Shown here one piece after another: positions 1-44,724 of a stretch of 64,000 nt of DNA. The DNA comes from Salinigranum rubrum. Lineage in GTDB: Archaea > Halobacteriota > Halobacteria > Halobacteriales > Haloferacaceae. The first letter of the stretch is position 1; each line of letters begins with the position of its first letter. The notes beneath the pieces were generated by a model, which had not been told where the DNA came from, ran no database searches, and was given only the letters and a program-made list of their open reading frames with translations. The translations under genes and the position numbers were made by a program. Where the stretch lies: positions 2,728,001-2,792,000 of the forward strand of contig NZ_CP026309.1 of NCBI RefSeq assembly GCF_002906575.1. Direction: 5' to 3'.

Positions 1-948
1 CAGAGTCAATTTTCGATAGAAGCACCGTTTTACCTTCGACAGTTGATCAAACGTTTTGACCCTGATGTTATTCATTTGCATAACAGGTTCTTCTTCACCA
101 CAGTATCGTCAACCGTCGCACAAGCAACACTGAGGTCTGCAGTTCCCACCGTGACGACCCTTCATCTGGGCGACATTAGTAATATCACGGGTCTATCGGG
201 GTACATCGCCCGACTGTTCGAACAGACGGTCGGACGGATAATGATTCGACGGAGCGATCGTATCATCGCGGTCAGTGAAGCTGTTGCAGAGTATTCGTAC
301 TCCCTCGGTGGAGTTCCTGAACGGACTAACGTCATCCCGAACGGGGTCGATACAGAGAGGTTCCATCCGAACCCGGAGAGAACCGGCAGCAATAGTATTC
401 TATTTGTCGGCAGACTGGTTCAAAATAAGGGGCCTCAGACACTGATAGACGCTATGCCGATGGTACTTCGGTCTGTACCCGACGCTGACCTGAAAATAGT
501 AGGAACGGGGCCGATGGAGAATACATTGAAGGCCCGCACTGAGGAGCTCGGAATACAAGAGTCGGTCAGATTCGTAGGGTATGTCCAAAGTGTGGCTGAA
601 GCGATGCGGTCAGCGGACGTGTTTTGTCGGCCATCTCTATCCGAGGGGATGCCATTGACGGTGTTAGAGGCAATGGCTAGTGGTCTACCCGCAGTCGTGA
701 CTCCGGTCGCAGGTGTTCCGGAGATTGTCACTCACGGTGAAACCGGAGTGCTCGTGCCACCGAAGAATCCTGCGGAGCTGAGTGAGGCGATTGTTGACCT
801 CTTGTCTGACGACGGGTCGAGAAAGCGGATCGCCGAGTCTGCTAGAGAGTACGTCGTACGGGAGCACAGTTGGGAAACACGTTGCGACGAAGTGTTGTCG
901 ACGTATTTGGATGTATTGAACGAATCTACGATGCTCGTACAGTCGTGA
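1..948 (+). CDS. Glycosyltransferase family 4 (GT-B fold), 5' end outside the window
   Basis: Transfers a sugar from a nucleotide donor during surface-glycan assembly on the cytoplasmic face; donor and acceptor cannot be read from sequence. The C-terminal Rossmann half is clear: the hinge motif VIPNGVDTERF, then ILFVGRLVQNKGPQTLIDAM, then the E-x7-E type donor site SEGMPLTVLEAMASG followed by GVPEIVTHGETGVLVPP. A TTG at base 43 would give 301 residues, but the frame is open to base 1 and family members usually have about 350-380 residues, so roughly 50-60 N-terminal residues are probably missing. A sulfatase-like gene follows 33 bp downstream on the same strand, suggesting one transcript. Base composition is lower in GC than the rest of the window. 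Confidence 0.88.
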   Translation, partial: QSQFSIEAPFYLRQLIKRFDPDVIHLHNRFFFTTVSSTVAQATLRSAVPTVTTLHLGDISNITGLSGYIARLFEQTVGRIMIRRSDRIIAVSEAVAEYSYSLGGVPERTNVIPNGVDTERFHPNPERTGSNSILFVGRLVQNKGPQTLIDAMPMVLRSVPDADLKIVGTGPMENTLKARTEELGIQESVRFVGYVQSVAEAMRSADVFCRPSLSEGMPLTVLEAMASGLPAVVTPVAGVPEIVTHGETGVLVPPKNPAELSEAIVDLLSDDGSRKRIAESAREYVVREHSWETRCDEVLSTYLDVLNESTMLVQS

Positions 949-981
949 TCCGTAGTCGATGATCAATAAAACAGAAAAATA

Positions 982-2295
982 ATGACAGAAGCAAACGATG
1001 TTGTCCTGATAGTATTAGATAGTGCAAGAAAGGACGTATACGACCGAGTTGCGAAAACCAGAGAGGTCGCCGATATTCGGTTCCAGCAAGCTCGGTCCGC
1101 TTCCTGCTGGAGTGTCCCCAGTCATGCGAGTATGTTCACGGGACGACTGCCGAGTGAACATGGAGTCCATGCCTACAACAAGAACATGGACCTCTCAGCG
1201 TTCACTACGATCTGCGACAGATGGGAGGGTAAAACGGTTGGTATCAGTAGCAACGTGTACGCTAGCTCTGCGTACGGCTTCGACAGAATCTTTGACGACT
1301 TCGTGGATGTCCCGCGGTATCAGCCGTTCCCGGACGGCATTGATGCGACGTCCGTGTTCAGGAACTCAACTGCTGACGGGATGGGGCTGTATCTCGAATT
1401 TATACGGGAGAGCATCAAAAGCGACCACCCTCTAAAAAGTATGGTGAACGGCGCCTCCGTTCAACTGAAAAAGTCCTTGATGGACACGAGATTCCCCGAG
1501 CCGATCGACCACGGTACGTCATCATCACTACGCATGATAAAGAGATACCTCCAGAGTTCGGACGAGCCCGTCTTTGGATTTTTAAACCTCATGGAGACTC
1601 ACGTCCCGTATAGCTATTTTCGGGGACTGAATTCGGCCTTTGTGGACGATGTGAGTTGGTCTTCGAGAGGCCTCGACCGATGGGAATTAAGCAGTGGCTC
1701 GTGTGATCCAGAGGACGAGAAACTGTACAGACAGTATCACGAAGCGACGATAGACTACACGACCCGAAAGATCCGCGAACTGGCTGAAGTACTCGAAGAC
1801 ACGGTTTTCATCATTACCGCAGATCACGGTGAGAATATGGGATACGAGGAAGAGGACAATCTGTGGGGGCACACCAGCAGTCTTTCCGAGGGAGTTTGCC
1901 ACGTCCCTCTGGACGTGTTAAACGGTCCAGCGTCAGTAGGAACGGAGCCGACTTTGGTAAGTCATCTAGATTTAGGAGATCTCGTCTGCTCGCTTAGGAG
2001 AGGTAGTGTTCCAGAGATCGGTCGGGATGTAGTGGGCGCCGAAACACTGGGTATGGCCGCCGGGTCCGACCCCCCAGAAGAGATGATACACTGGGATCGA
2101 CCCCTGAGGGCAGCCTGGCGTGGAGATGAGAAGGTGGTGTGGACTCTGGACGAAGACCACCGTTGTGACTGGGGTGCAGAGCTGTTCTCCGATTCGATTC
2201 ACGACGCGTACAAGCGTGCGAGACAAGGTCCACCCCAAGAAGTAGAGGTTGATGCCGCGGTCGAGGCGCGGCTCAAAGAACTCGGATACAAGTAA
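982..2295 (+). CDS. Sulfatase-like hydrolase/transferase (alkaline phosphatase superfamily)
   Basis: Alkaline-phosphatase-superfamily enzyme of 437 residues that probably adds or removes a sulfate or phospho-substituent on a glycan. Visible motifs: first metal-binding Asp in VLDSAR (about residue 13); nucleophile region CWSVPSHASMFTG (residues 42-54), where Ser44 takes the nucleophile place and His48 replaces the Arg of the classical C/S-x-P-x-R signature; second metal site ADHGEN. The Ser/His variant is, from memory, common in haloarchaeal sulfatase-like proteins, so classical arylsulfatase activity should not be assumed. No signal peptide or membrane segment is visible, so it looks cytoplasmic. 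It follows a GT4 gene and is convergent with a flippase gene, consistent with a glycan-modification role. Confidence 0.85.
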   Translation: MTEANDVVLIVLDSARKDVYDRVAKTREVADIRFQQARSASCWSVPSHASMFTGRLPSEHGVHAYNKNMDLSAFTTICDRWEGKTVGISSNVYASSAYGFDRIFDDFVDVPRYQPFPDGIDATSVFRNSTADGMGLYLEFIRESIKSDHPLKSMVNGASVQLKKSLMDTRFPEPIDHGTSSSLRMIKRYLQSSDEPVFGFLNLMETHVPYSYFRGLNSAFVDDVSWSSRGLDRWELSSGSCDPEDEKLYRQYHEATIDYTTRKIRELAEVLEDTVFIITADHGENMGYEEEDNLWGHTSSLSEGVCHVPLDVLNGPASVGTEPTLVSHLDLGDLVCSLRRGSVPEIGRDVVGAETLGMAAGSDPPEEMIHWDRPLRAAWRGDEKVVWTLDEDHRCDWGAELFSDSIHDAYKRARQGPPQEVEVDAAVEARLKELGYK

Positions 2296-2326
2296 TCAAA
2301 TCGACATCTATGGACCGTTCGTCTCC

Positions 2327-3769
2327 CTACCGGAGGGATTCGATCAAGAACAGATCGTTCGCGGTGACTCTATTCAACGCTAGTAAAAGAAATACTGACA
2401 CTGCAGCGACCCCGCTAATGAGGGCAAACGGAACAGTGTTTGGTAGCACCAGCGTACTCCCCGAAGATATCAATCCGCCCAAGAACAGTGCGGGCAGCAG
2501 ACCGATGTAGGACTTCGAGTACGGCCAGAACCCTAACACATATTTTACCTCAATGAGCCTCACGAGGTTCAGAAGAGAGATTGAGATCGTCGTCGCCACC
2601 GCGGCCCCTACGATGCCGTACTCCAGTATCAGAACGTAATTCAGCACCACGTTGATGACGGCAGCAGTGATCGCGTTTGTGGCCTGTAGTCGCTCGTGAT
2701 CAGTCATCAGAAGCAAGTACCCGGCAGGACCGACCAAGGCACCAATGAGTTGTCCGACTACGATGATGACAAACGGGATTCGAGCGTCGACGAACTCTGC
2801 CCCGAAAACGCCCAGAATGACCGGACTCCACGAAATCAGCCATACCCCTCCCAGCAACGTCAAATAGAAAATCCATTTCGTAGTCGTCTGGTAAAGCGAC
2901 TCGAGGTGGTCGACCCTTCCGTCGTTGAACATGCCCGATGCCACGGAGGGGAAGATCGAGTTGACGGAAACGATTGCGAAGGACAACAACGCGGCAGTTT
3001 GGAACGACAGCTGGTACAACCCCACGGACGCGGAGGTTACGAGCGCACCCAACATGAGAATATCCGTCCACCCCGTGAGTTTGTTCGCCACTTTCTCCGT
3101 CCCTGCATAGATTCCATACTTGATCAGTTCGCGTGACGAGTCCAGAGCGGGTACGCGAGGAAACGGAAGGTAAGACGACAACAGATAGATACCGATTATG
3201 TTGCTCATCGAAATCGCCACGCCGTAAGCAATCGCTACACCCATCAGTCCCCCATCTAGCCACACCGCAATCGCTACGAAGACCAGTCCGAGGATATATA
3301 TTCCTACTTCCCGAACGTAAACGCTGATTTCTACTCGCTTCAACCCCTCCGCGATACCACTCAATGTTTCAGAGAGTGCCAGCAACGGTGTCACAAGGAC
3401 CAACACGATTGCTGGATTCTCTCCAAGCGGTCTGCCTGAGTAAACCAGCAAGAAGAACACCGCTATTCCAGTTACAGTCCCGATAACTAACGGAATACAG
3501 ATGGAAAGCGCCACGTATTCGCCCAGATCATCACCATCGAGGATAGTAACGTAGCGTTGGCCGACGGTTCCCATTCCCAATCGGCCGATGAGAGACGCGA
3601 ACCGCAAGAGGATCAGTACGAAGGCAAACTCGCCAAGCGACTCTGGACCCAGAACGGCCGCGAGGAAAGCGGTCAACCCGTAATCGGCAGTGCGACCGAG
3701 AATCCGCCCGGTAAAGGAGATAGAAGCCTGTTCAAAAATCGACCCGCTGATTTTTTGTCGGATCGTCAT
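2327..3769 (-). CDS. Oligosaccharide flippase family protein (MVF/MATE-like, Wzx type)
   Basis: Integral membrane protein of 480 residues that probably flips a lipid-linked oligosaccharide to the outer face of the membrane. Hydrophobic segments occur along the whole length, about 12-14 in number. The N-terminus, with FTGRILGRTADYGLTAFLAA then GPESLGEFAFV, is typical of polysaccharide-biosynthesis flippases. The ATG lies 6 bp after the stop of the DUF2206-like gene, so the two are almost certainly co-transcribed. It converges on the sulfatase-like gene with 31 bp between stops. Neighbouring glycosyltransferase and sulfatase genes support a surface-glycan role. The exact lipid-linked substrate is unknown. 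Confidence 0.85.
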   Translation of the reverse strand: MTIRQKISGSIFEQASISFTGRILGRTADYGLTAFLAAVLGPESLGEFAFVLILLRFASLIGRLGMGTVGQRYVTILDGDDLGEYVALSICIPLVIGTVTGIAVFFLLVYSGRPLGENPAIVLVLVTPLLALSETLSGIAEGLKRVEISVYVREVGIYILGLVFVAIAVWLDGGLMGVAIAYGVAISMSNIIGIYLLSSYLPFPRVPALDSSRELIKYGIYAGTEKVANKLTGWTDILMLGALVTSASVGLYQLSFQTAALLSFAIVSVNSIFPSVASGMFNDGRVDHLESLYQTTTKWIFYLTLLGGVWLISWSPVILGVFGAEFVDARIPFVIIVVGQLIGALVGPAGYLLLMTDHERLQATNAITAAVINVVLNYVLILEYGIVGAAVATTISISLLNLVRLIEVKYVLGFWPYSKSYIGLLPALFLGGLISSGSTLVLPNTVPFALISGVAAVSVFLLLALNRVTANDLFLIESLR

Positions 3770-3775
3770 GGACGA

Positions 3776-5917
3776 TTACGACGAAGCCCAAAACAGACTC
3801 GTCTCATCCGAGACGAAAACCCTTGAGACCCGGGACTCGACACTTGGACTTGACGTCGCGTTATGCTGCTGAGAGATCAACAGCAGCGACCCTGGAGGAG
3901 GGCCGTACCGTGAGAGCGAGTCGATTTCGGAAGGTGGGAATCTGCCCGTGAGTAACACGCCTTCCCTGGTACCCAGATGGCCTCCCGGATTGTACACCGC
4001 AGGGCCACCCTCGCCCGCGTACCGATCGACCCAATCGAGTGATTTAGTCTCGGAGTCGGAGTAAACACGCCACTCTTGATTTTCCTCGGTGATGTTGATA
4101 CTGTATGGGGGAGCAGGTTCACCCACGATTACGAACGCGGCTCCGGAACTCACCGTGAGATACAGACCGAGATACAACGCCGTGGAAACAGCGAGAGCGC
4201 TCTTGATCCGGCCAGGCCTCACGGACGTCAGGTAGGCCACGGTGTCAATCAAGAGTTTCACACCTACGACGAAGAACGGCGAGAGGAAAACCAACATCAG
4301 CTGGAAGATCCGATCGAATCCCATTCCGAACGTGAGTATTACCGAGGATCCAGTAAGACCGAAGGCCAGTACACCGAGCATCGCGTACGGGGCGGATATA
4401 TTAGAAAGCGGAACTGGTCTCGCATCACTGCTCTTCCTGACCCTCAACAACTGCTCTTTAGCCGCTCGAATACTCGTCGCTGCAACGCCGAGCCCTATGG
4501 CGCCTACCAGCAAGATGCTGGATACCTTGTAAATCTGCCAGAGTAGTGTAGAACGCCCCTTGGTTACGTACCCGGCGCCGCTCCGGGTCGGAGGGGACGT
4601 GAGGAACTCCGGAATGGATTGAGCGGTCATTACGCCCCGCGCCACGATGTAATTGGCCATGATACCATCCCCTATCTGTAAATACCAGTAAGTCAACATG
4701 ATTCCGACGATGCTCAAAAACCAGAGATTGAACACGTAGTTGACCGTTCGCGTACCGCGGAACGGAACCACGACGCTGGCTATTCCGACTAGCGTCAGAA
4801 TACCGAATACCAGTATTGCTGATCCGTAATGCGAGGCTATCATGCCGGCCGCGACGAGGAGGAGAAGCGGCCTCTTCCAAGTGGTTCGCATTCTTTCTTC
4901 GAACGCCACGACCAGCAGCGTCACGATAAAGATCTCAGCGATGTAGTGTTTGTGTGGCATGTTTTTGAAGAATCCGTAGTAAAAGATGAAGACGAAGGGG
5001 GCGAGGGTAGCGACGGTCGCGTCTTTGAACACCCCTTTCGACACGTAATAGATGCCGACAGGGACCAGCGAGAAGAGAACCGGGTACACCAGCTTGAACA
5101 CCCAGACGATGTCGAGTCCAAGAACCAACTCAAGTGTCGGCGCCAGAACTGCGTACGTCAGCATGGTGTTGATGTTGAATTGGTACTGGTAGTTCCAGTA
5201 ACTCTGTCGGAGGACTTCGTTGGAGATGAACAACTCCCGATGGATGTCCCACCCCCAGATATACGAAGAAACGAGATTCATGTTCAGAAGAATCGCGATC
5301 GATGCAATCCAGACGATCATCACCCTAGTTTTCGATTCATCAACGAACACGGCCACAATCGGTAAACTCGATATTGTCAGTAGAAGGAGGATGTTGGAAA
5401 CGGGAAAACCCAGGTCGTTGAGAAGAACGGACGTTCCCATAACCGCGGACAAAAGCAGCAGGCCACCGATCGTCAGCACCTTCAGGGAAGGAAAGGCGTC
5501 TCTCGTTACGACCGGATTACGCTCATCGGTTGCACTCACGGTCGAGAGTATAATCACCAGACACGTGTTCACGCCGCCTAAACCCCAAAGAACGTTGATT
5601 AGCGTGAGTGGTTCGGCGATTCCAAGCAGTGGGAGTGAAAAGTTCAGCACAACCACTGTACATATGGAAATCACCAAACTGAGAGTCACCGAGACCAAGA
5701 TTCGAGGACCGAGATCCGATACCGGATACGCGTAGTACGAAACGATAGCACCGGGGAGTAGACACACGAAAACGAACCCGAGAGCGGGTCTGAGTAAAGG
5801 TATATCGAAAAGAGTCGAAAGGATAGTGCAGAGCTGGAAGACCCCGACCCAGAATATCACACTGTCGAATAACGGTGGTCTGTGAGCCCGGTTATGGAAA
5901 ATTCGTTCGGTCAGCAT
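3776..5917 (-). CDS. Large polytopic membrane protein, DUF2206-like
   Basis: A 713-residue protein with many hydrophobic helices through about residue 590 and a polar C-terminal tail of about 110 residues. The architecture and glycan context resemble archaeal DUF2206 membrane proteins, which may be GT-C type enzymes using lipid-phosphate sugars; this assignment is from memory of the family. A charged loop containing YIWGWDIHRELFISNEVL lies near residue 215, where GT-C proteins often carry acidic catalytic residues. It heads a two-gene operon with the flippase. Codon usage is AT-richer than in genes after 8 kb. It could instead be a glycan polymerase or ligase. Confidence 0.7.
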   Translation of the reverse strand: MLTERIFHNRAHRPPLFDSVIFWVGVFQLCTILSTLFDIPLLRPALGFVFVCLLPGAIVSYYAYPVSDLGPRILVSVTLSLVISICTVVVLNFSLPLLGIAEPLTLINVLWGLGGVNTCLVIILSTVSATDERNPVVTRDAFPSLKVLTIGGLLLLSAVMGTSVLLNDLGFPVSNILLLLTISSLPIVAVFVDESKTRVMIVWIASIAILLNMNLVSSYIWGWDIHRELFISNEVLRQSYWNYQYQFNINTMLTYAVLAPTLELVLGLDIVWVFKLVYPVLFSLVPVGIYYVSKGVFKDATVATLAPFVFIFYYGFFKNMPHKHYIAEIFIVTLLVVAFEERMRTTWKRPLLLLVAAGMIASHYGSAILVFGILTLVGIASVVVPFRGTRTVNYVFNLWFLSIVGIMLTYWYLQIGDGIMANYIVARGVMTAQSIPEFLTSPPTRSGAGYVTKGRSTLLWQIYKVSSILLVGAIGLGVAATSIRAAKEQLLRVRKSSDARPVPLSNISAPYAMLGVLAFGLTGSSVILTFGMGFDRIFQLMLVFLSPFFVVGVKLLIDTVAYLTSVRPGRIKSALAVSTALYLGLYLTVSSGAAFVIVGEPAPPYSINITEENQEWRVYSDSETKSLDWVDRYAGEGGPAVYNPGGHLGTREGVLLTGRFPPSEIDSLSRYGPPPGSLLLISQQHNATSSPSVESRVSRVFVSDETSLFWASS

Positions 5918-5983
5918 ACTACTGTAGAGTCGAACGGGATACCGAGAACCGAATGTTATCCGTGCGTCTCATTATTATGGTCC

Positions 5984-5994
5984 CTTATTATAAG
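5984..5994 (-). promoter_or_regulatory. Candidate TATA element for the DUF2206/flippase operon
   Basis: The palindromic stretch cttattataag lies about 67-77 bp upstream of the ATG in an otherwise gene-free, AT-rich segment. The position would suit a short leader. Seen by eye only. Confidence 0.35.
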
Positions 5995-6159
5995 TAGTTT
6001 CCACGTGAGTAGTCCTGTTATCAGGTGAGGCTGTTGGTGATATATAAACTTCGATGGGTGAGGACACAATGGCGACTCGGATTACTCTGAGATCGCACTC
6101 CGCAGAAACGAGGAGAATATCGCTTGGATCGTTATGACTATCCCAGTCACCACCTCTAA

Positions 6160-6644
6160 GAATCGGTAGCGACAGGCCAAGCGTTGTCCGGTGCTCTAAA
6201 TTCACAGTCTCGACGAGGAGATTCGTTACGGAATCTTGAGCGGTGCGGATCGGTTCACTCGCGACGGTTGCAAACGCCCCGAATAGACGATTCGCGCGCC
6301 TACGATTACGAAGAGGCTTCCGACGATGATGGAATTCAGGCCCAATGTGACGTTGTTGAGTTGGATTCCCGAGATCGAGAGCATGAGTATGGAGACGCCG
6401 ATTATTGCGAGAAGTATCTCATGTTCGGAGAATAAGTACCCGGGGTATTCACGAGTATGAACTTCACGTGGCGCCAGCCGTCCCGGAACGAGTCCAAGGT
6501 CGCTTCGCCCTCACGCCCGTGGTACGTAATCGGCTGTTCCTCGATGTGGAAATCCGGCCCCAGCCCGCATGATCATCTCCGAGGCGAACTTCATACCGGT
6601 CGTCTCGGGGTTCATAATCTCGTACGCCTCGCGCGTGAACACCC
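6160..6644 (-). pseudogene. Remnant of a GT2 glycosyltransferase (C-terminal half)
   Basis: The minus strand retains recognisable pieces of a GT2 gene closely related to the intact copy ending at 26164 in this window. The motif VFTREAYEIMNPETTG is near identical to the intact copy, as is the DNA around 6570-6640. Weaker matches (an INLEHGATAGL-like stretch, the FPDGWRHVKF region) continue in shifted frames to about 6165. The N-terminal catalytic part with the DxD motif is absent: at about 6644 the sequence switches abruptly to an IS1595-type transposase. The fragment is full of frame changes and is not expected to be expressed. It marks an old insertion or deletion at the edge of the glycan island. 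Confidence 0.75.
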
Positions 6645-7088
6645 CACGCGAGCGCGACTCGCGGTCGCGCTCAGGACCCTTCTTCCCGGCAGAAACGTAC
6701 ACTTCGTCCATCTCGACCGGTCCCTCCAAGGCGAGGGAAGACACATCAAGCGCTGAGACGAAGCGCTCAACGGCCAGTGCATCGTCTTGTAGATGACACC
6801 GATCTCTCGCTGAAGTTGGCGAAGGGTCGTGTTGAACCGAAGGAACATGTAGATCGAGAACAACCATTTCCGAAGCGCGACCTTCGAGTGAGCGAAAATC
6901 GTACCAGTCTTATCGTTGAAGGTTCGGTCGCGATCCTTACAGAGATACCGCTGAAAGTGCCCGTAGCTGCCGTTTCTGACCGTCAGGTCAGAACGGCAGC
7001 GGAGACAAGTCACACTGTCACGCCAGCGAACCTGTTGGAGCAGGTCCGCTGCGACCGATTCCGACCCAAACACTTCCAGTGGAATCAT
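6645..7088 (-). mobile_element. IS1595-type transposase remnant, truncated and frameshifted
   Basis: The reading frame from the ATG at 7088 starts MIPLEVFGSES and carries a zinc-ribbon with CLRC followed by a degraded second pair (CKDRD instead of the expected CxxC), then an HTH-like segment FLRFNTTLRQLQREI. After about 6790 the homology continues in another frame with VERFVSALD and the first catalytic-Asp region VEMDEVYVSAGKKG, ending at SRSRG. There it joins the GT2 remnant directly. The rest of the DDE domain is missing, so the element cannot encode an active transposase. Family assignment rests on the zinc-ribbon plus EVYVSAGKKG pattern of haloarchaeal IS1595 members. Confidence 0.75.
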
Positions 7089-7095
7089 CAGTGTC

Positions 7096-7117
7096 GGGCA
7101 CCGCTGACGCGGTGCCC
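7096..7117. repeat. Perfect 9-bp inverted repeat upstream of the IS1595 remnant
   Basis: gggcaccgc and gcggtgccc are separated by tgac, forming a hairpin just upstream of the transposase start. It may be part of the element's end or the remains of a terminator. Confidence 0.5.
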
Positions 7118-7149
7118 TTGTCCTCTTCGGCTCCACAGCTACGGCTGAA

Positions 7150-7773
7150 CAGCATCAGCAATCTCCTACAGAAGAGCGGTGATGTTAATCAAATTCAGAT
7201 CGTACCGCTTCCCACCGAATCATACCGTGCTGACGGACGGCCGGGGTTCGATATTCTATTCGTGGGGCGACTAATCGAAGAGAAGCGTGTCGACGCGCTC
7301 CTGGACGCGCTCAACCGAGTCGCCGAAGAGTACGACGTGACGCTGGGAAGAGTAGGGGACGTCCACAGGTCGACGCATTTCGAGACCGGGGGTCGGCCCT
7401 CGACCATGCAGGGCGGGTGACCTTCCTCGGGTTCCTCGACGATTACAAGGACGTCCTCGGCCACATGCGTGCTGTTCGCGTTTTCGCCTCGCCGTCGACG
7501 CGAGAAGTCTTTGGAATCATCCGCGCCGAAGCGATGGCCGCAGTCTGTACTGTCATCGCAGCGGATCACCCCACTTCAGCAGTGGGTGAAGTAGTCGACG
7601 ACGCAGGATACCTCGTCGAGCCGACGGTCGATGGCGTAGCTGAGGCACTGGACCACGCACTGTCGGGAGAACGACCACCGACCACTCCGACAGAACATGC
7701 GACACGGTACGACTGGGATACGGTTGCGAAGCAGGCCGAGGAAGTGTATCAGCGAGCAATCGACACCCGATAA
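7150..7773 (+). pseudogene. GT4 glycosyltransferase remnant (C-terminal half, frameshifted)
   Basis: Carries the GT-B C-terminal half: FDILFVGRLIEEKRVDALLD in one frame to about 7375, then, after a frame change near 7420, VTFLGFLDDYKDVLGHM, the donor-site region STREVFGIIRAEAMAA and GYLVEPTVDGVAEAL, ending at a TAA at 7771. The N-terminal acceptor domain is absent, and no plausible start precedes the homologous part. The usual Gly of the EGFG-type motif has become EVFG, another sign of decay. The left edge adjoins the IS1595 remnant, so one rearrangement probably removed the front of this gene as well as the front of the GT2 gene. Not expected to give a functional enzyme. Confidence 0.75.
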
Positions 7774-7831
7774 GGACCCCAACCAGAGTTGCGCCTCGGG
7801 TTCGTCGTTTGAAGGAAACAACCGGACAGTA

Positions 7832-8770
7832 CTACGAGAACATGATCGCCTGAAACTCGTCGACCGTTTTCACTGGGAGGAAATACAACACGGCAAACGT
7901 CACCAGCGCCCACAACAGCAGATTGACCATCATCGGCCGGTCGACGAACATCCGCTCGGGCTGTTTCATGCCCTTCTCGATGGTCAAATACCCGTACCGG
8001 AATACGGCATAGAGCGCGAACGGAATCGTGAGCATCATCGCATCTGAGCGGACGAAGAACGTGTACAACGAGTACGAGACCAACAGGACGGCACACACGC
8101 TGATGAACATGACCTGCAGTAACTCACCTGAGTAATCGTCCAAGCTCTGTCGGATGTCTTCGCCATTCTCCACGCTACCAAGCTCAGCCCGTCGCTTTCC
8201 AGTCCCGAGAAGCAGCGCAGTCAAGAACGTACACAGCACGAGCCACGGGCTGATGGGGGCACCGACGAGGACGACCCCGGCAATCGCGCGGATCACGAAG
8301 CCGACGCCGAGGATGAGGAGGTCAACGAAAATATAGTCTTTCAGCCCTACACTGTACAGCGCGTTCTGCACGACGTACACGACGAGGAGGAACCCGAACG
8401 CCGGATCGATGACCCAGCCAACGGCCGGCCCAGCGACCAATCCAGGAAACGCGACCCCTGCCGCGACGGCAACGCTCACCCGTCCGCTCGCGATCGGACG
8501 GTGTTTCTTTCGCGGGTGATTCCGGTCCTCCTTGATGTCCATGATGTCGTTGACGATATACACACAGCCAGCCGTGAGTGAGAAGACGGTAGCCCCGACC
8601 ACGACGCGGAGCCAGATGGCGACGTCAAGCGGATCGAAGTACTGAAACGAGAACACGACCGGGACGAAGATGATGAGCTGCTTGTACCACTGCCACGGAC
8701 GAAGCGAGTAGACGATTCCCGTGACGGTGGAGCTGGCTGTCCCGCTGTAGGTCAACGACTCGTCACTCAT
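7832..8770 (-). CDS. UbiA-family prenyltransferase, decaprenyl-phosphate phosphoribosyltransferase-like
   Basis: A 312-residue polytopic protein with about nine hydrophobic helices. It probably transfers 5-phosphoribose from PRPP to a polyprenyl or dolichyl phosphate, giving a lipid-linked pentose. The opening LRPWQWYKQ and the metal/diphosphate motif NDIMDIKED (N74, D75, D78, D82) match the phosphoribosyltransferase branch of UbiA, the type of the mycobacterial arabinan enzyme. The ATG sits 3 bp after the stop of an SDR epimerase gene, so they form an operon. Pairing with an epimerase suggests a lipid-linked ribose that is then modified. A related prenyl-acceptor specificity cannot be ruled out from sequence. 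Confidence 0.82.
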   Translation of the reverse strand: MSDESLTYSGTASSTVTGIVYSLRPWQWYKQLIIFVPVVFSFQYFDPLDVAIWLRVVVGATVFSLTAGCVYIVNDIMDIKEDRNHPRKKHRPIASGRVSVAVAAGVAFPGLVAGPAVGWVIDPAFGFLLVVYVVQNALYSVGLKDYIFVDLLILGVGFVIRAIAGVVLVGAPISPWLVLCTFLTALLLGTGKRRAELGSVENGEDIRQSLDDYSGELLQVMFISVCAVLLVSYSLYTFFVRSDAMMLTIPFALYAVFRYGYLTIEKGMKQPERMFVDRPMMVNLLLWALVTFAVLYFLPVKTVDEFQAIMFS

Positions 8771-37271: not shown

Positions 37272-40200
37272 ATGAGCCACGACGACAGTCCTACAGAGGG
37301 TGACGAGGGCGGGTCGACGATTCCCGTCGTCGACCGGTCGGAGGAGACGGTCACCGGGACGTGGCGTGACCACATCGACCTCCCGACCGATCCCCTCCCG
37401 TCCCGGAGCGAGCGCGCGAAGTTCCGTCTCCTCGATTCCGACGGAAAGCCCGTGAGTGGGGTTCCGATGAACATCACCGTCACGTCTGTCGAGGGAGAGA
37501 CCGAGACGATCAAGGCCACTCCGGGACCGACCGGATTCACGACGGTCGACCTCTCTGGCGTCGACCTGAACACCGCGGAGTCGGTGACGTTCACCCCCAC
37601 CACCGGCGGACAACAGACGACCGTCGACCCGTCGTCGCTCCTCGGAAACGGGTCGAACGCGCTGAACCTCGGCTTCGAGCGTGGCATGCTCGACATCCCC
37701 GACTCCGTCTTCGACGGCTTCGACGAGCAGGTGTTCCCGCTCCCACCGGACATCGACGACCTGCTCACCGCGCCCGAACTGTTCAACCCGAAGGTCGTCG
37801 AGGAGAACGGGACCTGCTCGATCGACTTCACCGCGAAGGTCGACGTCCACGAGAACTTCTTCAACCAACTGGTCCGGTTGAAACCGGAGTCGCTCGAGGA
37901 GACCGCCGTCGACAGACCGAGCGGCGAGAACGTCCTCGACGGACAGATTCCCTTCGAGCTCTCGCCGGCGTTCCCGCCCGACAGAGCGGAGTTGCCTGAG
38001 GAGGAGCGGTCGTATCTCCACCACGCGAGCACACCGACGTTCGGGACGCTGAACGTCTACAAGCAGTCGTGGACGCGGGTGGGTCACAGCCTCGGGAAAC
38101 TGCTGCACTCGCTGACGCTCGCGCCCTGTGAGTCGACGGAGGTCGCTATCGTCGAGTGGTCACGGACGGAGCGAGGGCGGCGACAGGAGCGGACGGGCGT
38201 GAGCGAGCAGAAGCGTCACGAACTCCACCGCAACCGGATGATCGAGGAGATCGTCGAGGGGATGGTCAAGGAGAAACAGTGGGGGAAGAGCAGGTCGGTG
38301 CAGGGCGGTGTCGGCGTGAGCGGTGGCCTCGCTGGCGTGGCCCAGGGAGTTCTCGGATCGGTCGGACTCAGCATCGGCGGCGGTGCGGCGGCTTCGGCCA
38401 GTCAGACCGGTGGCCGCCGACAGCTCCAGGCAAGCACCGTCCACAACCTGGTCGACAACGTGGTCCAGGGGGCGTCGAGTATGCGGTCGCTCCGCTCGAC
38501 CGTCGTCACCCAGTCACAGGAGGTCGAACGCGACGAGGTCCGGACCCGGTCGGTCGAGAACCACAACCGCAACCACGCGCTGACCGTCGAGTACTTCCAG
38601 GTTCTCGAACACTACAACGTCCACACGGACTTCGAACGGGAGACCGAGGTGTTGATGATCCCCTACGAAATCCCGGTGGCATTGTGGAACGACCCGCCAG
38701 CGTTCAGTGCGTTCGTGATCGACGAGACCGAGCGTATCTCGCTGCTCGCGACCGTCGCGACACGGGTCGGCAACCGGATGGACTCGTTCCTCTCACAGTC
38801 GGGACAAGACGAGATCGGTGACACGCAGTTGGTCAACGAGAGACAGACAGCGATCAACGAGATTCAGGAGGCCGTCCTCACGGCGGGACGCGACCTCATC
38901 GACGAGGAGTCGGACATCTACATCGTCGAGGACGACCCGGTGAAGTTCGCTACGAAGGCGTGGGCGGATCTTCGGCGCCGAATCCAGGGTGACGAGAACG
39001 TCCTGTTTGGGAACTACAACATCAAGGCCGAGCACTTCGACCGTGGAGCGTTCTTCGAGACGGTGTTGGAAGCCACCGCGGCCGTGATGGACCGTACCGA
39101 TCCCCGAGAGGAGTCGCCGCTCGTCGGGTGGCTCGACCAGCACGCGGAGTCGCTTCGCGAGATGGTGCCGGCCGAGTACGACGACGCGTTCGACGCGCTG
39201 TATCGCTTAGTCCACACGCCGGAGGTGTACGAGGCATCGAAGCCAACGGTCACCATCTCGAACTGGACAGTCGAACTCCGGGAGGCGTGGCGCCCCGGGG
39301 TGAGCATTCTCGTCCACACGACAAACGGGCAGACGGTCAGTCTCCGGCACGACGAGGCGACCGAGGGGTCGGCAGTGGCCTCGTTCAGTTCACCCCCGGT
39401 CGACGCGGGAGCCATCAGCGCGTTCGAGATCAACTTCGCGCCGGAGAAGGCGACGAAGACGGTCGTCAAGAGCGTCGGCGAGACGGTCGACGACCTCGGA
39501 GACGCGCTCGGCGAGGTCGGTGAGTTCTTCACCGGTCAGGACGACGCACCCCTCACCGAGGAGGTCAAGAAGGCGCGGAAGTACGACGTCGACCGCTTCC
39601 GCGTGACGGGTCACACCGACCCGATGGAGTCGCTCCCGCAGTCGCAGTCGTACCAGCTCCTCGATGAGTCGAACGTCGACGAGACGCTGACGGCTGACGA
39701 TACGTCGCTCCGTCGGTCGAACGTCCACGTCCGGGAGCCGGACATCCTCGAAACGGAGACCCGTCGGTACGAGGACTACAGCAAGGTCGAAGAACTCATC
39801 AACCACGTCCAGGCCAACCGGATGGCGTACCTGCGGCGGCTCTGGCTGAACGAAGACCCCGACAAGCGTGCGCTTCGTTTCCAGCCGTACCGCTATCCGA
39901 TCAGGCAGAACGGCTCGACGGAACTGGTTCCGCTGCTCGACCTCATCGAGAACGAGCCGCTGGGGGTGGTGGGGAACTCGGTCGCGTTCCGACTGCTCGA
40001 CCAAGACCAACTCGAGAACTACGAGGAGGTGACCGACGACGACCTCCGCAGCAGCAAGCTCGTGAGCCTCCCCACCCGCGGGGTGTACGCGGAGACGTTG
40101 CTGTCGCACTGCAACGCGACGGAGATGCGGGACCTCGACCGGATGCCCACGGAGCGGAGTCGCTGTCAGACGGAGGCGCCCGATATCACGGGCGTCTCCC

Positions 40201-41744
40201 CCGGGTCGCGACAGTCCGACGAGCAACTGCAGCCGACCGTTCCGCAGTCGACAGTGAGTCTCCAGCAACCCCCGAGCGCGCCCCAGCCGACGGGTCTGTC
40301 ACAGGCGCTCCAACTCCTCGCGACGCCCGACATCTTCCGTGATATGTCGCTCGGGAGCGAGACAGTCGACGCGGCGAATACGCTCGCGAAGCAGGCGCTC
40401 ACCGAATCCGGCGACGCCCGCAAGCAGACGCTCGAGGCACTCTCGTCGATGCTCGGGGGCGCTTCCGGCGATGGAGGGAGTGGAAGCAGTGGCAGCGGCG
40501 GTGCCAGCAGTAGCGACGGAGGAGGCGGGAGCGGCGGTGGCGGCGGCGGGTCGCAGTCCGCCGCGTTCGAGGCGGCACGCGATGCCGTCCAGAACGCCGC
40601 CAACGAGGCGTACCGGAAGGCGGACCCGGTGAGGGTTCGGGACCTCCAGCGGGCGCAGAACAAGGCCCGCGACGAGGGGTCCTACAGTGAGGAAGACCAC
40701 GAACGCAGCACGAAGCGTCTTCACAACGCCGACGAGACGAAATCGCCCGCCTCCGGTCGCGACTTCCCCACGGTGAAGCAGTTCGACGTCGAACACGGCG
40801 ACCAGTGGGTGAAAGGCAAGGTGCTTCTGGCCGACTTCGACGTGGGCTCGTCGTCGCTCAAACAACAGCACAAGTCCTTCCTCCGCGATCAGCTCATGCC
40901 CGTTCTCGAAGACGGGAAGATCCCGCTCATCGAAGGCCACGCCAGTCGAACTGGGCCCGCTGACGAGAACCAGCAACTCTCGGAGGACCGAGCGAAGGCC
41001 GTACGTGACTTCCTCGTCGAGGAACTCGGACTCCCCGCACACCGCATCCTAGACGTAACGGGCGTCGGGGAGTCCGAACCGGTCGACGCTGGTGGCCCCA
41101 TCGAAGACCCCGCCGAGCGGAGCGTCGTCCTGCAGTACCGTGCGTACACGCCCGTCCCGGTGATCGACCGGCCGGAGACGCCGGTCGACCCGGAAGGCCA
41201 GAAGAAGTATACGAAGTGGCGGATGCGACTCGATTTCGAACCGAAGAACACGCTCGAGGAACTCGTCTCGGGAGAGGGACTGATCGAACAGGCGCTCAAG
41301 CAGAAGACCATCGACGTTATCCTCGAGAACCGGGAGGAGGAGAACCCGCAGACGCTGAAAGGGAAGATCCTCTTCCGGGGAATCCACGTCGGAATCTGGC
41401 TCAACACGCCACCGGAGGGGCCGACGTCGACGGACTGGCTCGATTTCGAGACCGACGGACCGATGGCCGAGATGGCGTGGCACGGCGTCATGGGCGACAT
41501 TCAGTTCGGCGTGGCGACGACCAACGAGTACACGTCGGGTGTCCACGCCGTCGTACTGGACCTGGCCCCGATGAAGAGCACGATCAAGACGAAGGTGCGG
41601 TTGACGAAGGACGACGAGGCGATCGGCGTCCAGGGCGGGAGCAGCCTTCTGACGCCGCTAGACGCCCAGTTGTGGCTCACCGACCCGAAGCCCACGCAGC
41701 GACCCGGTGCGGACACCACCTGGGAGTGGGAGTGGAGCCCCTGA
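37272..41744 (+). CDS. Giant multidomain protein with OmpA-C-like domain
   Basis: A 1490-residue protein without signal peptide. Residues 45-120 look like an Ig-like regulatory domain. A long region carries SLGKLLHSLTLAPCESTEVA (about 275-295). A Gly/Ala-rich hydrophobic stretch (GGLAGVAQGVLGSVGLSIGG, about 350-375) follows, then NHALTVEYFQVLEHYNVHTD near 435. Gly/Ser linker repeats occupy about 1062-1095. Residues about 1180-1300 form an OmpA-C-like fold: FDVGSSSLKQQHKSFLRDQL, the GHASRTG strand (1222-1228) and LSEDRAKAVRDFL with Arg1240. The Asp that binds diaminopimelate in peptidoglycan-binding OmpA (normally GHTD) is Ser1225 here. It precedes a LamG-like and a Vps62-like gene. The true role is unknown to me. 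Confidence 0.75.
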   Translation: MSHDDSPTEGDEGGSTIPVVDRSEETVTGTWRDHIDLPTDPLPSRSERAKFRLLDSDGKPVSGVPMNITVTSVEGETETIKATPGPTGFTTVDLSGVDLNTAESVTFTPTTGGQQTTVDPSSLLGNGSNALNLGFERGMLDIPDSVFDGFDEQVFPLPPDIDDLLTAPELFNPKVVEENGTCSIDFTAKVDVHENFFNQLVRLKPESLEETAVDRPSGENVLDGQIPFELSPAFPPDRAELPEEERSYLHHASTPTFGTLNVYKQSWTRVGHSLGKLLHSLTLAPCESTEVAIVEWSRTERGRRQERTGVSEQKRHELHRNRMIEEIVEGMVKEKQWGKSRSVQGGVGVSGGLAGVAQGVLGSVGLSIGGGAAASASQTGGRRQLQASTVHNLVDNVVQGASSMRSLRSTVVTQSQEVERDEVRTRSVENHNRNHALTVEYFQVLEHYNVHTDFERETEVLMIPYEIPVALWNDPPAFSAFVIDETERISLLATVATRVGNRMDSFLSQSGQDEIGDTQLVNERQTAINEIQEAVLTAGRDLIDEESDIYIVEDDPVKFATKAWADLRRRIQGDENVLFGNYNIKAEHFDRGAFFETVLEATAAVMDRTDPREESPLVGWLDQHAESLREMVPAEYDDAFDALYRLVHTPEVYEASKPTVTISNWTVELREAWRPGVSILVHTTNGQTVSLRHDEATEGSAVASFSSPPVDAGAISAFEINFAPEKATKTVVKSVGETVDDLGDALGEVGEFFTGQDDAPLTEEVKKARKYDVDRFRVTGHTDPMESLPQSQSYQLLDESNVDETLTADDTSLRRSNVHVREPDILETETRRYEDYSKVEELINHVQANRMAYLRRLWLNEDPDKRALRFQPYRYPIRQNGSTELVPLLDLIENEPLGVVGNSVAFRLLDQDQLENYEEVTDDDLRSSKLVSLPTRGVYAETLLSHCNATEMRDLDRMPTERSRCQTEAPDITGVSPGSRQSDEQLQPTVPQSTVSLQQPPSAPQPTGLSQALQLLATPDIFRDMSLGSETVDAANTLAKQALTESGDARKQTLEALSSMLGGASGDGGSGSSGSGGASSSDGGGGSGGGGGGSQSAAFEAARDAVQNAANEAYRKADPVRVRDLQRAQNKARDEGSYSEEDHERSTKRLHNADETKSPASGRDFPTVKQFDVEHGDQWVKGKVLLADFDVGSSSLKQQHKSFLRDQLMPVLEDGKIPLIEGHASRTGPADENQQLSEDRAKAVRDFLVEELGLPAHRILDVTGVGESEPVDAGGPIEDPAERSVVLQYRAYTPVPVIDRPETPVDPEGQKKYTKWRMRLDFEPKNTLEELVSGEGLIEQALKQKTIDVILENREEENPQTLKGKILFRGIHVGIWLNTPPEGPTSTDWLDFETDGPMAEMAWHGVMGDIQFGVATTNEYTSGVHAVVLDLAPMKSTIKTKVRLTKDDEAIGVQGGSSLLTPLDAQLWLTDPKPTQRPGADTTWEWEWSP

Positions 41745-41785
41745 CGGACGCGACTTCCCTTCCACCGCCTCGCCACCGCGGGAAC

Positions 41786-41807
41786 GACGCCCTACGCTCG
41801 TAGCGTC
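41786..41807. repeat. Imperfect hairpin resembling the one before the giant gene
   Basis: ctac and gtag pair around gctc, inside gacg and cgtc. It shares the 11 bases ctcgtagcgtc with the hairpin at 37029-37048. The two lie on either side of the giant gene. A weak terminator or processing element is possible. Confidence 0.4.
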
Positions 41808-41900
41808 ACGATTTACGAGCGTGTGTATGCGATACGTTCTCATCACTCATGGCAGATCAGCGCACAGCACTGTCAACCACCGACCGACACGAGACAACCG

Positions 41901-43016
41901 ATGTTCACACAGATACTCCATCACACGTACAAACTCAACGGTGATGCCATCGACGTCTCCGGGAACGACACCCACGGCCGGCGGACCGACACACAGCACG
42001 TCACCGACGGGCGCTCCGCAGAGACGGGGGCTCTCGAGTACACCCAGCCGAGTAGCGACGTGACGGTCCCCACGGGACCCGTGTGGGAACGACTACGGGC
42101 GCTGAAGCTCGAACTGTGGGTGAAACTGGACGAGTTGGGACAGCGGCGAAACCTCATCGAGGGTGACCGCTGCTTCGCCTTCTACATCCAGCCCGATGGG
42201 ACCCTCATCGGGACGATACTCGCCCCGCCGCGCGCGGACGCGGACCCGACGTGGCACGGCGCCAACAGCGAGGACGACTCGCCCGACGGGACGACGCGGA
42301 CGGTGCCGACCGACGAGTGGGTCAGGCTCTCGTATCTCCACGACGGCGTCTCCTCGCTCCAGTTGTACATCGACGGCGAACTCGTCGCCGTCAACGACGA
42401 CCTGTACGCCGGCGTCGGGTCGGTCCAGCCGAAAGGAGTCCAGATCGGCCACTGGGTCGGGGACGGTCGGTACACGTTCTCGGGGCTCATCGACGACGTG
42501 AAGGTGTGGAAGTATGACCCCGAGGCGGGGCTCGACCAACTGTTCTGCCGACCGCTGGACAGCGAGCAACGCGCCTGCTGGAAGGCGGTCTTCGACCGGA
42601 TGGGCGAGGCCGCAGACGACCCGGACCGGTCGCTGGCGCTGATCAAGACGATGAACTGCATCTGGCAGGAGGTCGAGCGCCTCGTGCGAGCGGTGCGAAG
42701 CCAGGGCGTCGCCGCCCGACAGACGCACCGAGAGTTCGTCAGCCGCTACCAGGACCTGTGGTGTTGTGGCGCCATCGCGGGCGCTGCGATGCGTGATCTC
42801 CTCGAGGAGTGGTTCGCGTGGCTGGCAGAACTGGTCGGGGAGGTTCGTATCCGGGAGTTCCAACGGACGCTCTGGGCGTGTTATCAGGAGTACGGAGCGG
42901 AAGAGTGGCTCCAGTCCGGAGACGGCCATCGGCTCGCGGAGTGTGACCCCGAGTTCGTCTCGTATCTCGACCTCGTGTACGAGGTGTTCGGAGGGCCGGA
43001 CGCACCGGAGACCTGA
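41901..43016 (+). CDS. LamG/ConA-lectin-fold protein of the OmpA-like cluster
   Basis: A 371-residue protein from the ATG at 41901. Residues 1-210 are beta-rich with a LamG/ConA-like lectin pattern: DAIDVSGNDTHGRR near the start, LKLELWVKLDELGQRRNLIE as a central strand pair, WVRLSYLHDGVSSLQLYIDG and the closing FSGLIDDVKVWKYDPEAGL. Such domains bind glycans or act as structural modules in large assemblies. The C-terminal 160 residues are helical with several Trp and Cys (YQDLWCCGAIAGAAMRDLLE, ACYQEYGAEEW). No signal peptide is visible. It lies 156 bp after the giant gene and 19 bp before the Vps62-like gene. Confidence 0.75.
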   Translation: MFTQILHHTYKLNGDAIDVSGNDTHGRRTDTQHVTDGRSAETGALEYTQPSSDVTVPTGPVWERLRALKLELWVKLDELGQRRNLIEGDRCFAFYIQPDGTLIGTILAPPRADADPTWHGANSEDDSPDGTTRTVPTDEWVRLSYLHDGVSSLQLYIDGELVAVNDDLYAGVGSVQPKGVQIGHWVGDGRYTFSGLIDDVKVWKYDPEAGLDQLFCRPLDSEQRACWKAVFDRMGEAADDPDRSLALIKTMNCIWQEVERLVRAVRSQGVAARQTHREFVSRYQDLWCCGAIAGAAMRDLLEEWFAWLAELVGEVRIREFQRTLWACYQEYGAEEWLQSGDGHRLAECDPEFVSYLDLVYEVFGGPDAPET

Positions 43017-43020
43017 ACGC

Positions 43021-43028
43021 GAAGGAGG
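43021..43028 (+). promoter_or_regulatory. Shine-Dalgarno site for the Vps62-like gene
   Basis: gaaggagg ends 7 bp before the ATG at 43036 and fixes that start over upstream in-frame candidates. It lies inside the 19-bp gap after the LamG gene, so the two genes share a transcript. Confidence 0.7.
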
Positions 43029-43035
43029 CTCACCA

Positions 43036-44724
43036 ATGCAACTCTCACCCGAACAGAAGCGGACGCTCGCAGCGACCTACGAACCGATTCTCGTCCTCCA
43101 TCCCCGAGAGAAATTCACGCCGGTGAACCCGCGCGTCTACATGGAGTCGTGTGCCATGTGGTGTACGGAGCCGGGGAGTGGAGACGCGATACACGCGAAG
43201 GACAACTGGGGTGACTGCTCGGGCCAGCAGTCGTTCCCCCGCAAACCACTCATCGAGCGGTCCAACCTCAGCACCGACCCGAGCGACAGCGGGCCGTCCG
43301 ATCCGGTCTACATCGGCGAACGAGACGACCTGAACCGGCCACAGTATCTCACGAGCGGCGACGAGCGACTCCTCTGGCTGGACACCACAGGGTGGAAACG
43401 AGACACGGACGAGTGGATCGTTCCGCCGTGGACGACGGACGTCACCGAGGAGACCGCGAACCGCGAGGTCAGCATCGACGCGGCACGAGACCAGTACCAG
43501 TCGTGGAGAGAAGAGACGGAGGACGGAACTCGTCCTGTCGTCGACTGGTACTCGGCCGAGGTCGTCGACCTGGACGAACTCGAAGAACTGCTCGTCCGCA
43601 GTTCGGACGCGGTGAGCCTCGAAAACCTGAAGACACTGTTCAGCGGGAGCGTCCTCGTCGTCTGGTACTACTTCCTGTATCCCGTCCATCAAGAGGAGAC
43701 GCGCGGGTGTGAACGGGTCGCCGGTGTCGGCCGACACGGGAACTACGAGGGGGACTGGACGGCGGTCGGCGTCGTCGTCCACCGGGAAGGGTGGCTCAGT
43801 CTGCTCGAAGACATCGCGGAGGACGGTGACCTCGACGTCGATCACGACCGAATCCCCGAACCGCTGTACGTCGGCTTCGGTCGGCGGGGCAAGGGCGTTC
43901 TCGAATCGCTCGACATCGACGTCGCGAAGCGAACGTTCCGGCCGCGGATGGAGGTCGACCGCTGGCAGGAGGTCGGTCGGAGAGCGGGAACCCACCCAGT
44001 CGTCTACGTCGCACGTGGCAGTCACAACAACTACCGGACAGCGGGGGAGAAGTCGCCACCCTCGTCGGATCTCAGCGATACGACGTGCGAGGCCGTCGAA
44101 GGGGCCGCGAAAGTGGCGTCGGAAGTGAACAAGAAAGCTGACGAAACGGTCGAGGTGGCCGAAGAGGTCGCGGACGACGCGCGCGACGCGGCGGTCACGC
44201 TGGCGAAGGTCGCAGCCGGGGCTGGCGCGGGCGCCGCCATCGCTGGAGGCGCCGGGGCTGCACTGGGTGCCGGAGTCGGTGCTGTCTCCGCCGGAATCGA
44301 GGCCAGTCAGTCCAGTGTCGACCTCGACGGCGATGGAAACGGTGACGGGGATGGTGGCGTCCTTGGCGGGGGGAGTGGTGTCGACGCTGGAGACGCGACG
44401 GACCAGACGGCCGCCGAGGACGACTACGGCGTGGTTCTGGCACCCGAACACCTCGTGTCGCAGTTGCAAAGCGAGTTCACCGCGACCGACGTTCGGCCCT
44501 GGACTGGAGAAGTGAGCGACCGGATCGTCGACCGACGGGAGCAGCGATGGTGGCCCACGACACCCGAAGTGACTGACGATGAGGGTCGGCCGATACAGGG
44601 GTACGACGGCCGCTGGGGTGCCCTGTGTCGGACCGACCCTGCCGACAGACGGAGCGGTATCGAGTTCCCGCTGTTCAAGCGGAGCCTGTTGAAGGAGTTG
44701 GTGATGGAAGGCGCTCGTGAGTGA
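43036..44724 (+). CDS. Vps62-like protein of the OmpA-like cluster
   Basis: A 562-residue protein. Vps62-related motifs are visible: YEPILVLHPREKFTPVNPRV at the N-terminus, a middle FSGSVLVVWYYFLYPVH, GRHGNYEGDWTAVGVVVHRE and HPVVYVARGSHNNYR. Residues about 355-392 are a charged helical stretch (ASEVNKKADETVEVAEEVAD), followed at about 394-423 by a Gly/Ala-rich hydrophobic segment (GAGAGAAIAGGAGAALGAGV) that could insert into a membrane. A Gly/Asp linker and a tail with WWPTTPEVTDDEGRPIQGYD follow. Vps62-like folds are known from eukaryotic and some bacterial proteins of unclear function. It ends the three-gene cluster and converges on a small membrane protein gene. Confidence 0.75.
   Translation: MQLSPEQKRTLAATYEPILVLHPREKFTPVNPRVYMESCAMWCTEPGSGDAIHAKDNWGDCSGQQSFPRKPLIERSNLSTDPSDSGPSDPVYIGERDDLNRPQYLTSGDERLLWLDTTGWKRDTDEWIVPPWTTDVTEETANREVSIDAARDQYQSWREETEDGTRPVVDWYSAEVVDLDELEELLVRSSDAVSLENLKTLFSGSVLVVWYYFLYPVHQEETRGCERVAGVGRHGNYEGDWTAVGVVVHREGWLSLLEDIAEDGDLDVDHDRIPEPLYVGFGRRGKGVLESLDIDVAKRTFRPRMEVDRWQEVGRRAGTHPVVYVARGSHNNYRTAGEKSPPSSDLSDTTCEAVEGAAKVASEVNKKADETVEVAEEVADDARDAAVTLAKVAAGAGAGAAIAGGAGAALGAGVGAVSAGIEASQSSVDLDGDGNGDGDGGVLGGGSGVDAGDATDQTAAEDDYGVVLAPEHLVSQLQSEFTATDVRPWTGEVSDRIVDRREQRWWPTTPEVTDDEGRPIQGYDGRWGALCRTDPADRRSGIEFPLFKRSLLKELVMEGARE

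What the first reader, a model, noticed from the sequence alone, without database searches (positions are those of the whole stretch)
37272..44724. Undescribed three-gene cluster: OmpA-like giant, LamG-like and Vps62-like proteins
Seen in sequence: three co-directional genes encode a 1490-residue protein with an OmpA-C-like module, a lectin-fold protein and a Vps62-like protein. None has a signal peptide. Archaea lack peptidoglycan and an outer membrane, so an OmpA-C domain is unexpected. Inference: together they may form a large envelope or cytoplasmic assembly, or an injection or toxin-type system. I know of no described system with this composition in archaea.
Basis: partly seen in the sequence, partly recalled or inferred. 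Interest (0 to 1): 0.88.

Follow-up and report, generated by a model that had tools for sequence, protein, structure and literature searches.

The report
Haloarchaeal giant with swapped-tail family core
The flagged genes are real but are two separate imported units: a giant protein whose core recurs in at least 11 bacterial phyla with constantly exchanged tail domains (often cell-wall enzymes, here an OmpA-type domain), and a lectin/Vps62-like gene pair that also occurs in actinobacteria; both look like inter-microbe effector genes, though nothing has been tested in the lab.

Summary
All three genes exist. OmpA (Pfam E 1e-15) and LamG (1.4e-12) are confirmed. Vps62 fails at profile level for the window protein and holds only by motif and through relatives. 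The trio itself occurs nowhere else I looked; it is two modules. Module A is G1. Its core (about residues 235-1055) has no Pfam family but recurs in 77 loci from a GTDB-wide scan, in at least 11 bacterial phyla, plus a few haloarchaea. The C-terminal tail is swapped: 101 of 133 pairs with at least 50% identical cores have unrelated tails. Tails include GH25 lysozyme, lytic transglycosylase, DUF2272, CHAP-like and OmpA. AlphaFold predicts a long hairpin in the core (tip low confidence, aerolysin-type Foldseek hits) and, in a bacterial relative, a PLAT-like membrane-binding domain. Module B is G2-G3, a LamG/Vps62-like pair adjacent in four Mycobacteriales loci without G1. Best reading: a polymorphic, membrane-engaging effector family with exchangeable, often cell-wall-directed tails, imported and salt-adapted here, beside a second effector-like pair. 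The OmpA domain lacks the usual peptidoglycan-anchoring Asp. Export route, target and pore formation are inferred, and sequence periodicity argues against an amphipathic beta stem. New variant of a known kind; interest 0.62.

The parts
37272..41744 (+). G1, 1490-aa giant; conserved core plus OmpA-type tail
   Evidence: ORF; core relatives; OmpA
37974..40436 (+). G1 core (residues 235-1055), family without a Pfam model, shared with at least 11 bacterial phyla
38037..38663 (+). Predicted long antiparallel hairpin (residues 256-464); base confident, tip low confidence
   Evidence: AlphaFold; Foldseek; periodicity
38301..38390 (+). Gly/Ser/Ala-rich hairpin tip (residues 344-373)
39300..39443 (+). 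Possible PLAT-like segment (residues 677-724), weak in the window protein, clear only in the bacterial relative L043
39789..40361 (+). Second conserved core block (LPTRG ... TPDIFRDMS motif, about residues 840-1030)
40836..41108 (+). OmpA-type domain (residues 1189-1279); GHAS replaces GHTD, Arg kept
41139..41741 (+). C-terminal about 200 aa of unknown type
   Evidence: no convincing relative
41901..43016 (+). G2, LamG-like protein, 371 aa
   Evidence: orthologues
43036..44724 (+). G3, Vps62-like (motif level), 562 aa, with a Gly/Ala-rich segment

Best explanation
The locus joins two horizontally acquired effector-type modules. G1 is a haloarchaeal member of a widespread polymorphic family. 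The N-terminal and core region is thought to dock on a membrane (PLAT-like domain, predicted confidently only in a bacterial relative) and insert a long Gly-rich hairpin. The exchangeable C-terminal module, here OmpA plus about 200 aa, acts on or holds the target's envelope. G2-G3 is a separate conserved pair of a LamG lectin-fold binder and a Vps62-like partner, probably also surface- or membrane-directed. Shown here: genes, conservation, tail swapping, phylum-crossing distribution, pair conservation, salt adaptation. Inferred: membrane insertion, export without a signal peptide (cell lysis or an unknown route), bacterial targets.
For: Core in 77 genome loci, 9 plasmid genera and 3 strong haloarchaeal genomes. 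101/133 pairs with core identity >=50% have unrelated tails, 21 tail clusters among 45. Tails are GH25 E 1.6e-39, DUF2272, DUF922, CHAP, beta-lactamase-like, OmpA and lytic transglycosylase E 9e-40. The tree intermixes phyla, e.g. Arthrobacter beside Rubrivivax. PLAT-like match to phospholipase alpha-toxin, lipoxygenase and lipase domains at probability 1.00. Long hairpin in two models, with aerolysin, lysenin and epsilon-toxin pores among the hits. An OmpA-tailed counterpart in a Psychrobacter plasmid, 37% identical over the OmpA module. G2-G3 pair in L007, L125, L126, L127. Acidic, codon-matched proteins.
Against: The hairpin tip has pLDDT 28-50 and Foldseek TM-scores are low (0.04-0.23). 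The segments flanking the tip show helical, not beta, amphipathicity. PLAT is not confirmed in the window protein (probability 3.9). No conserved immunity gene and no signal peptide. Several tails are not recognisable enzymes. The OmpA anchor Asp is Ser. A haloarchaeon itself has no peptidoglycan, and no bacterial target is shown.
Confidence: 0.42

Rival explanations
1. G1 is an intracellular or cell-surface scaffold that displays or stores an exchangeable domain, with no pore and no killing; the encapsulin linkage in some species reflects compartment cargo.
For: Encapsulin gene directly upstream of the giant in Nitrosomonas sp. Nm166, N. nitrosa and Methyloglobulus (PF04454 E 3.9e-15, 2.1e-19, 2e-16). 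No signal peptide seen. Many tails are Ig-like or unrecognised.
Against: Encapsulin adjacency in only 3 of about 80 loci, and the two of the three present in the tree are sisters. Lysozyme and transglycosylase tails make little sense inside a cell.
Confidence: 0.2
2. G1 is a payload delivered by a contractile injection system, as described for PVC-type toxins with C-terminal OmpA modules (PMC3482391).
For: 21 of 40 genomes searched (39 of them G1-bearing bacteria) have a phage-sheath-family gene over the cut-off. Literature reports OmpA at the extreme C-terminus of PVC-delivered toxins and variable toxins in haloarchaea.
Against: The window's own genome has no sheath match. G1 lacks an HExxH motif such as metallopeptidases carry. 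Sheath genes are common through prophages and no matched control was run. No sheath gene stood out among the adjacent genes scanned.
Confidence: 0.1
3. G1-G2-G3 form one new haloarchaeal system that assembled only in this lineage.
For: Same strand, G2-G3 gap 19 bp, G1-G2 gap 156 bp, similar base composition and acidity.
Against: No co-occurrence elsewhere. A 9-bp inverted repeat in the G1-G2 gap and no Shine-Dalgarno before G2 hint at separate transcription (sequence read).
Confidence: 0.13
4. Non-functional hitchhiking genes brought in by plasmid traffic.
For: Rare in the class; relatives often lie on plasmids.
Against: Intact 1490-aa frame, host-like codon usage and halophilic acidity imply long-term maintenance.
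Confidence: 0.1

Closest known systems
Polymorphic toxin systems (Zhang et al. 2012, PMC3482391)
   Same: Conserved large N-terminal/core part with C-terminal modules swapped between close relatives; OmpA reported as a C-terminal module; horizontal spread
   Different: No known trafficking domain, no conserved immunity gene, core not in Pfam, recognised tails biased to cell-wall modules, many unknown
Aerolysin-fold beta pore-forming proteins
   Same: Two models show a long hairpin; Foldseek hits include aerolysin, lysenin and epsilon-toxin pores
   Different: Low TM-scores, low-confidence tip, no beta-amphipathic alternation, no sequence match in PDB
PLAT/LH2 membrane-binding domains (phospholipase-type alpha-toxin C-terminus, lipoxygenases)
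   Same: Confident beta-sandwich in bacterial relative L043, probability 1.00
   Different: No PLAT Pfam hit in the core members scanned; unconfirmed in the window protein
OmpA C-terminal peptidoglycan-binding domain (PF00691)
   Same: Domain significant at E 1e-15; Arg of LS..RA kept
   Different: GHTD Asp replaced by Ser; no outer membrane or peptidoglycan in the host
Archaeal peptidoglycan hydrolases that kill bacteria (PMC12352652)
   Same: Archaea carrying modules aimed at bacterial cell walls
   Different: That paper's main text does not mention OmpA or DUF2272; here a non-enzymatic wall module sits on a giant core

Membership tests
OmpA-type domain (PF00691) | Profile score above curated cut-off | tested here: met
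   58.3 bits against 27.2, E 1e-15; 37% identical to the Psychrobacter module
OmpA-type domain (PF00691) | Peptidoglycan-anchoring Asp (GHTD) and Arg | tested here: not met
   Window reads GHAS; all five solved homologues aligned carry GHTD or GYTD; the Arg is present. The role of the pair is established knowledge.
Laminin_G_3 (PF13385) | Profile score above cut-off | tested here: met
   48.5 bits against 27.6
Vps62 (PF06101) | Profile score above cut-off | tested here: not met
   No hit for G3; orthologues sub-threshold
Vps62 (PF06101) | YEP...LW, (G)DW, HPxxYxA.GSH motif set | tested here: met
   Visible in the window and orthologues; motif significance judged from memory
Polymorphic toxin system | Conserved core with unrelated C-termini in close relatives | tested here: met
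   101 of 133 pairs
Polymorphic toxin system | Immunity gene directly downstream | tested here: not met
   No conserved downstream gene in the window's clade; the distant clade has a conserved one of unknown role
Polymorphic toxin system | Toxic activity of the tail | not testable with these tools
   Needs experiment
Contractile injection payload | Sheath/baseplate genes in the genome | tested here: not met
   No sheath match in the window's genome
Aerolysin-like pore former | Amphipathic beta-hairpin stem | tested here: inconclusive
   Hairpin predicted but periodicity is helical around the tip
Encapsulin cargo | Encapsulin gene adjacent | tested here: inconclusive
   Three bacterial loci; none seen among the window neighbours that were scanned

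The most novel reading that the evidence does not exclude
An undescribed cross-domain family of single-chain, membrane-inserting carriers with interchangeable cell-wall-directed tails, exported without signal peptides, sometimes packaged with an encapsulin, and used by a haloarchaeon against bacteria.
Probability: 0.25. Interest if true: 0.85.

Novelty: new variant of a known kind. Interest (0 to 1): 0.62.

Why it matters
A conserved 800-residue core present in at least 11 bacterial phyla and in haloarchaea has no Pfam model among the members scanned, although its C-terminus is exchanged as in known effector systems. Naming it would annotate a large set of 'hypothetical' giants, make a new, often wall-directed effector class testable, and add a non-enzymatic wall module to the short list of archaeal tools that may act on bacteria.

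Tried and rejected
Trio as one system: rejected. Phage or virus origin: no relatives in viral contigs; one unverified metagenomic 'phage' record only. Anti-phage defence: PADLOC hits only the OmpA part, to ZorB. Contamination: rejected on acidity and codon usage. Contractile injection payload: no sheath in the genome. Homology of the core to a solved protein by sequence: none. GH19-like identity of the Nocardia/Nostoc tail, suspected by eye, was not confirmed. Whole-genome searches with the full 1490-aa query failed on the server and were replaced by a shorter core query. An empty-site comparison with the sister genome was not clean: only one flanking gene aligned.

Full report
Observation. 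The three co-directional genes are real at the stated place. G1 spans 37272-41744, G2 41901-43016 and G3 43036-44724. OmpA in G1 and LamG in G2 pass curated Pfam cut-offs; G3 has no family hit. The proteins are acidic (pI 4.5-4.7) and resemble the host in base composition and codon usage, so they are resident haloarchaeal genes and not contamination. Their neighbours are ordinary haloarchaeal genes: a PAS/GAF/HTH_10 regulator upstream, and a DUF7475 protein and a PAS histidine kinase downstream. OmpA domains over the cut-off occur in only 2 of 381 sampled Halobacteria genomes.

G1 belongs to a large family without a model. tblastn against plasmids found the central part of G1 in 29 records from nine genera, among them Streptomyces, Polaromonas, Nostoc, Psychrobacter, Caballeronia and Haladaptatus. 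No Pfam family covers the core in the six members scanned, apart from a Tectonin insert in one Streptomyces member. A scan of GTDB species genomes with a three-row alignment returned 77 loci. The tree places them in at least 11 bacterial phyla with strong intermixing, for example Arthrobacter beside Rubrivivax. The Haladaptatus-type haloarchaeal members fall far from the window, so haloarchaea probably acquired the family more than once; the window row has a long branch and its place is unsure. Within 391 Halobacteria only the window's genome and two others have strong matches.

The C-terminus is exchangeable. After the motif TPNIFRDMSG the members carry mostly 280-560 residues that differ widely. 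Of 133 pairs with cores at least 50% identical, 101 have unrelated tails; 45 tails fall into 21 clusters. Recognised tails are GH25 lysozyme (E 1.6e-39), DUF2272, DUF922, CHAP-like, beta-lactamase-like, Ig-like and OmpA, and a lytic transglycosylase in Caballeronia (E 9e-40). The window's tail is an OmpA-type domain followed by about 200 unassigned residues. Its OmpA module is a specific relative (37% over 109 residues) of the one in the tail of a Psychrobacter plasmid giant. In Caballeronia a separate OmpA protein overlaps the start of the giant's open frame. In the window and Psychrobacter modules the usual GHTD reads GHAS, so the peptidoglycan-anchoring Asp is missing while the Arg is kept.

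Structure. AlphaFold on the window core (55 sequences; pLDDT 57) and on the Nocardia relative L043 (45 sequences; pLDDT 72) both gave a long antiparallel hairpin whose base is confident and whose Gly-rich tip is not. Foldseek hits for that part include aerolysin, lysenin and epsilon-toxin pores, with low TM-scores. The segments flanking the tip have helical rather than beta amphipathicity, so a helix-Gly-loop-helix insertion element is equally possible. The top Foldseek hits of the L043 model, about 139 residues at probability 1.00, are proteins that share a PLAT membrane-binding domain; I assign them to the confident beta-sandwich at about residues 506-643. In the window protein this region aligns only weakly. 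Membrane engagement is therefore plausible, and pore formation is unproven.

G2-G3 is a separate conserved pair. G3 has relatives in a Rhodococcus plasmid and in three of 349 sampled Mycobacteriales genomes. In all four a LamG gene homologous to G2 lies immediately upstream. No G1 relative lies near any of them. In 391 Halobacteria genomes only the window's has a convincing G3. Vps62 is a motif-level label: orthologues score below the PF06101 cut-off, and published work warns that part of what that Pfam family labels is a beta-tripod domain (PMC7613979). A related mycobacterial family with NDHEADWE and HPVV..GxGSHS motifs suggests a broader superfamily.

Reading. Two imported effector-type modules sit side by side. 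For G1 the evidence supports a polymorphic carrier with exchangeable, often wall-directed tails. How it leaves the cell and what it meets are unknown. The injection idea is weakened by the absence of a sheath gene in this genome. The encapsulin gene next to three bacterial giants is an unexplained and attractive lead. Archaea with bacteria-killing peptidoglycan hydrolases are known (PMC12352652), which makes a wall-binding module on an archaeal effector reasonable but not shown.

Limits. The genome scans sample species and use conserved peptide patterns, so rare trios could be missed; flanks were at most 10 kb. Signal peptides were judged by eye. No matched control was run for sheath genes. 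The tail comparison uses BLAST, so very remote kinship between tails would be missed, and the 133 pairs are not independent.

Noticed in passing
L014:7615-8457, L039:150-1019, L044:3287-4111: Encapsulin (PF04454) gene directly upstream of the giant in Nitrosomonas sp. Nm166, Methyloglobulus and Nitrosomonas nitrosa; the giant could be a new kind of encapsulin cargo or partner.
   Followed up: partly
L062-L087 and L008, directly downstream of the giant: A distant clade of giants has a conserved downstream gene of about 330 aa ('LEAQRILLQRLA..GDVFPSRVPAPLNITEVGGYLNLL'), sometimes with TIG domains, otherwise with no Pfam assignment in the members scanned.
   Followed up: partly
L008:5305-6555: Novosphingobium PP1Y plasmid: a neprosin-family peptidase gene sits directly upstream of the giant.
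   Followed up: no
L029, L032, L037 upstream of the giant: A second upstream family (264-328 aa) without Pfam hits recurs next to giants in Streptomyces, Symbioplanes and Terriglobia.
   Followed up: no
L128-L131: Mycobacteriales proteins of 600-690 aa with LRRYEP...LW, NDHEADWE and HPVV..GxGSHS motifs, related to the G3 N-terminus and weakly to NPP1.
   Followed up: partly
window 1-8000: Lower GC (0.52-0.57) than most of the window (0.6-0.7); sulfatase, polysaccharide flippase, DUF2206 and glycosyltransferase genes, a surface-glycan island.
   Followed up: no
L135 (G373): A second haloarchaeal genome with a strong OmpA domain (E 1.3e-18) in a 361-aa frame, the only other one over the cut-off in 381 genomes.
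   Followed up: no
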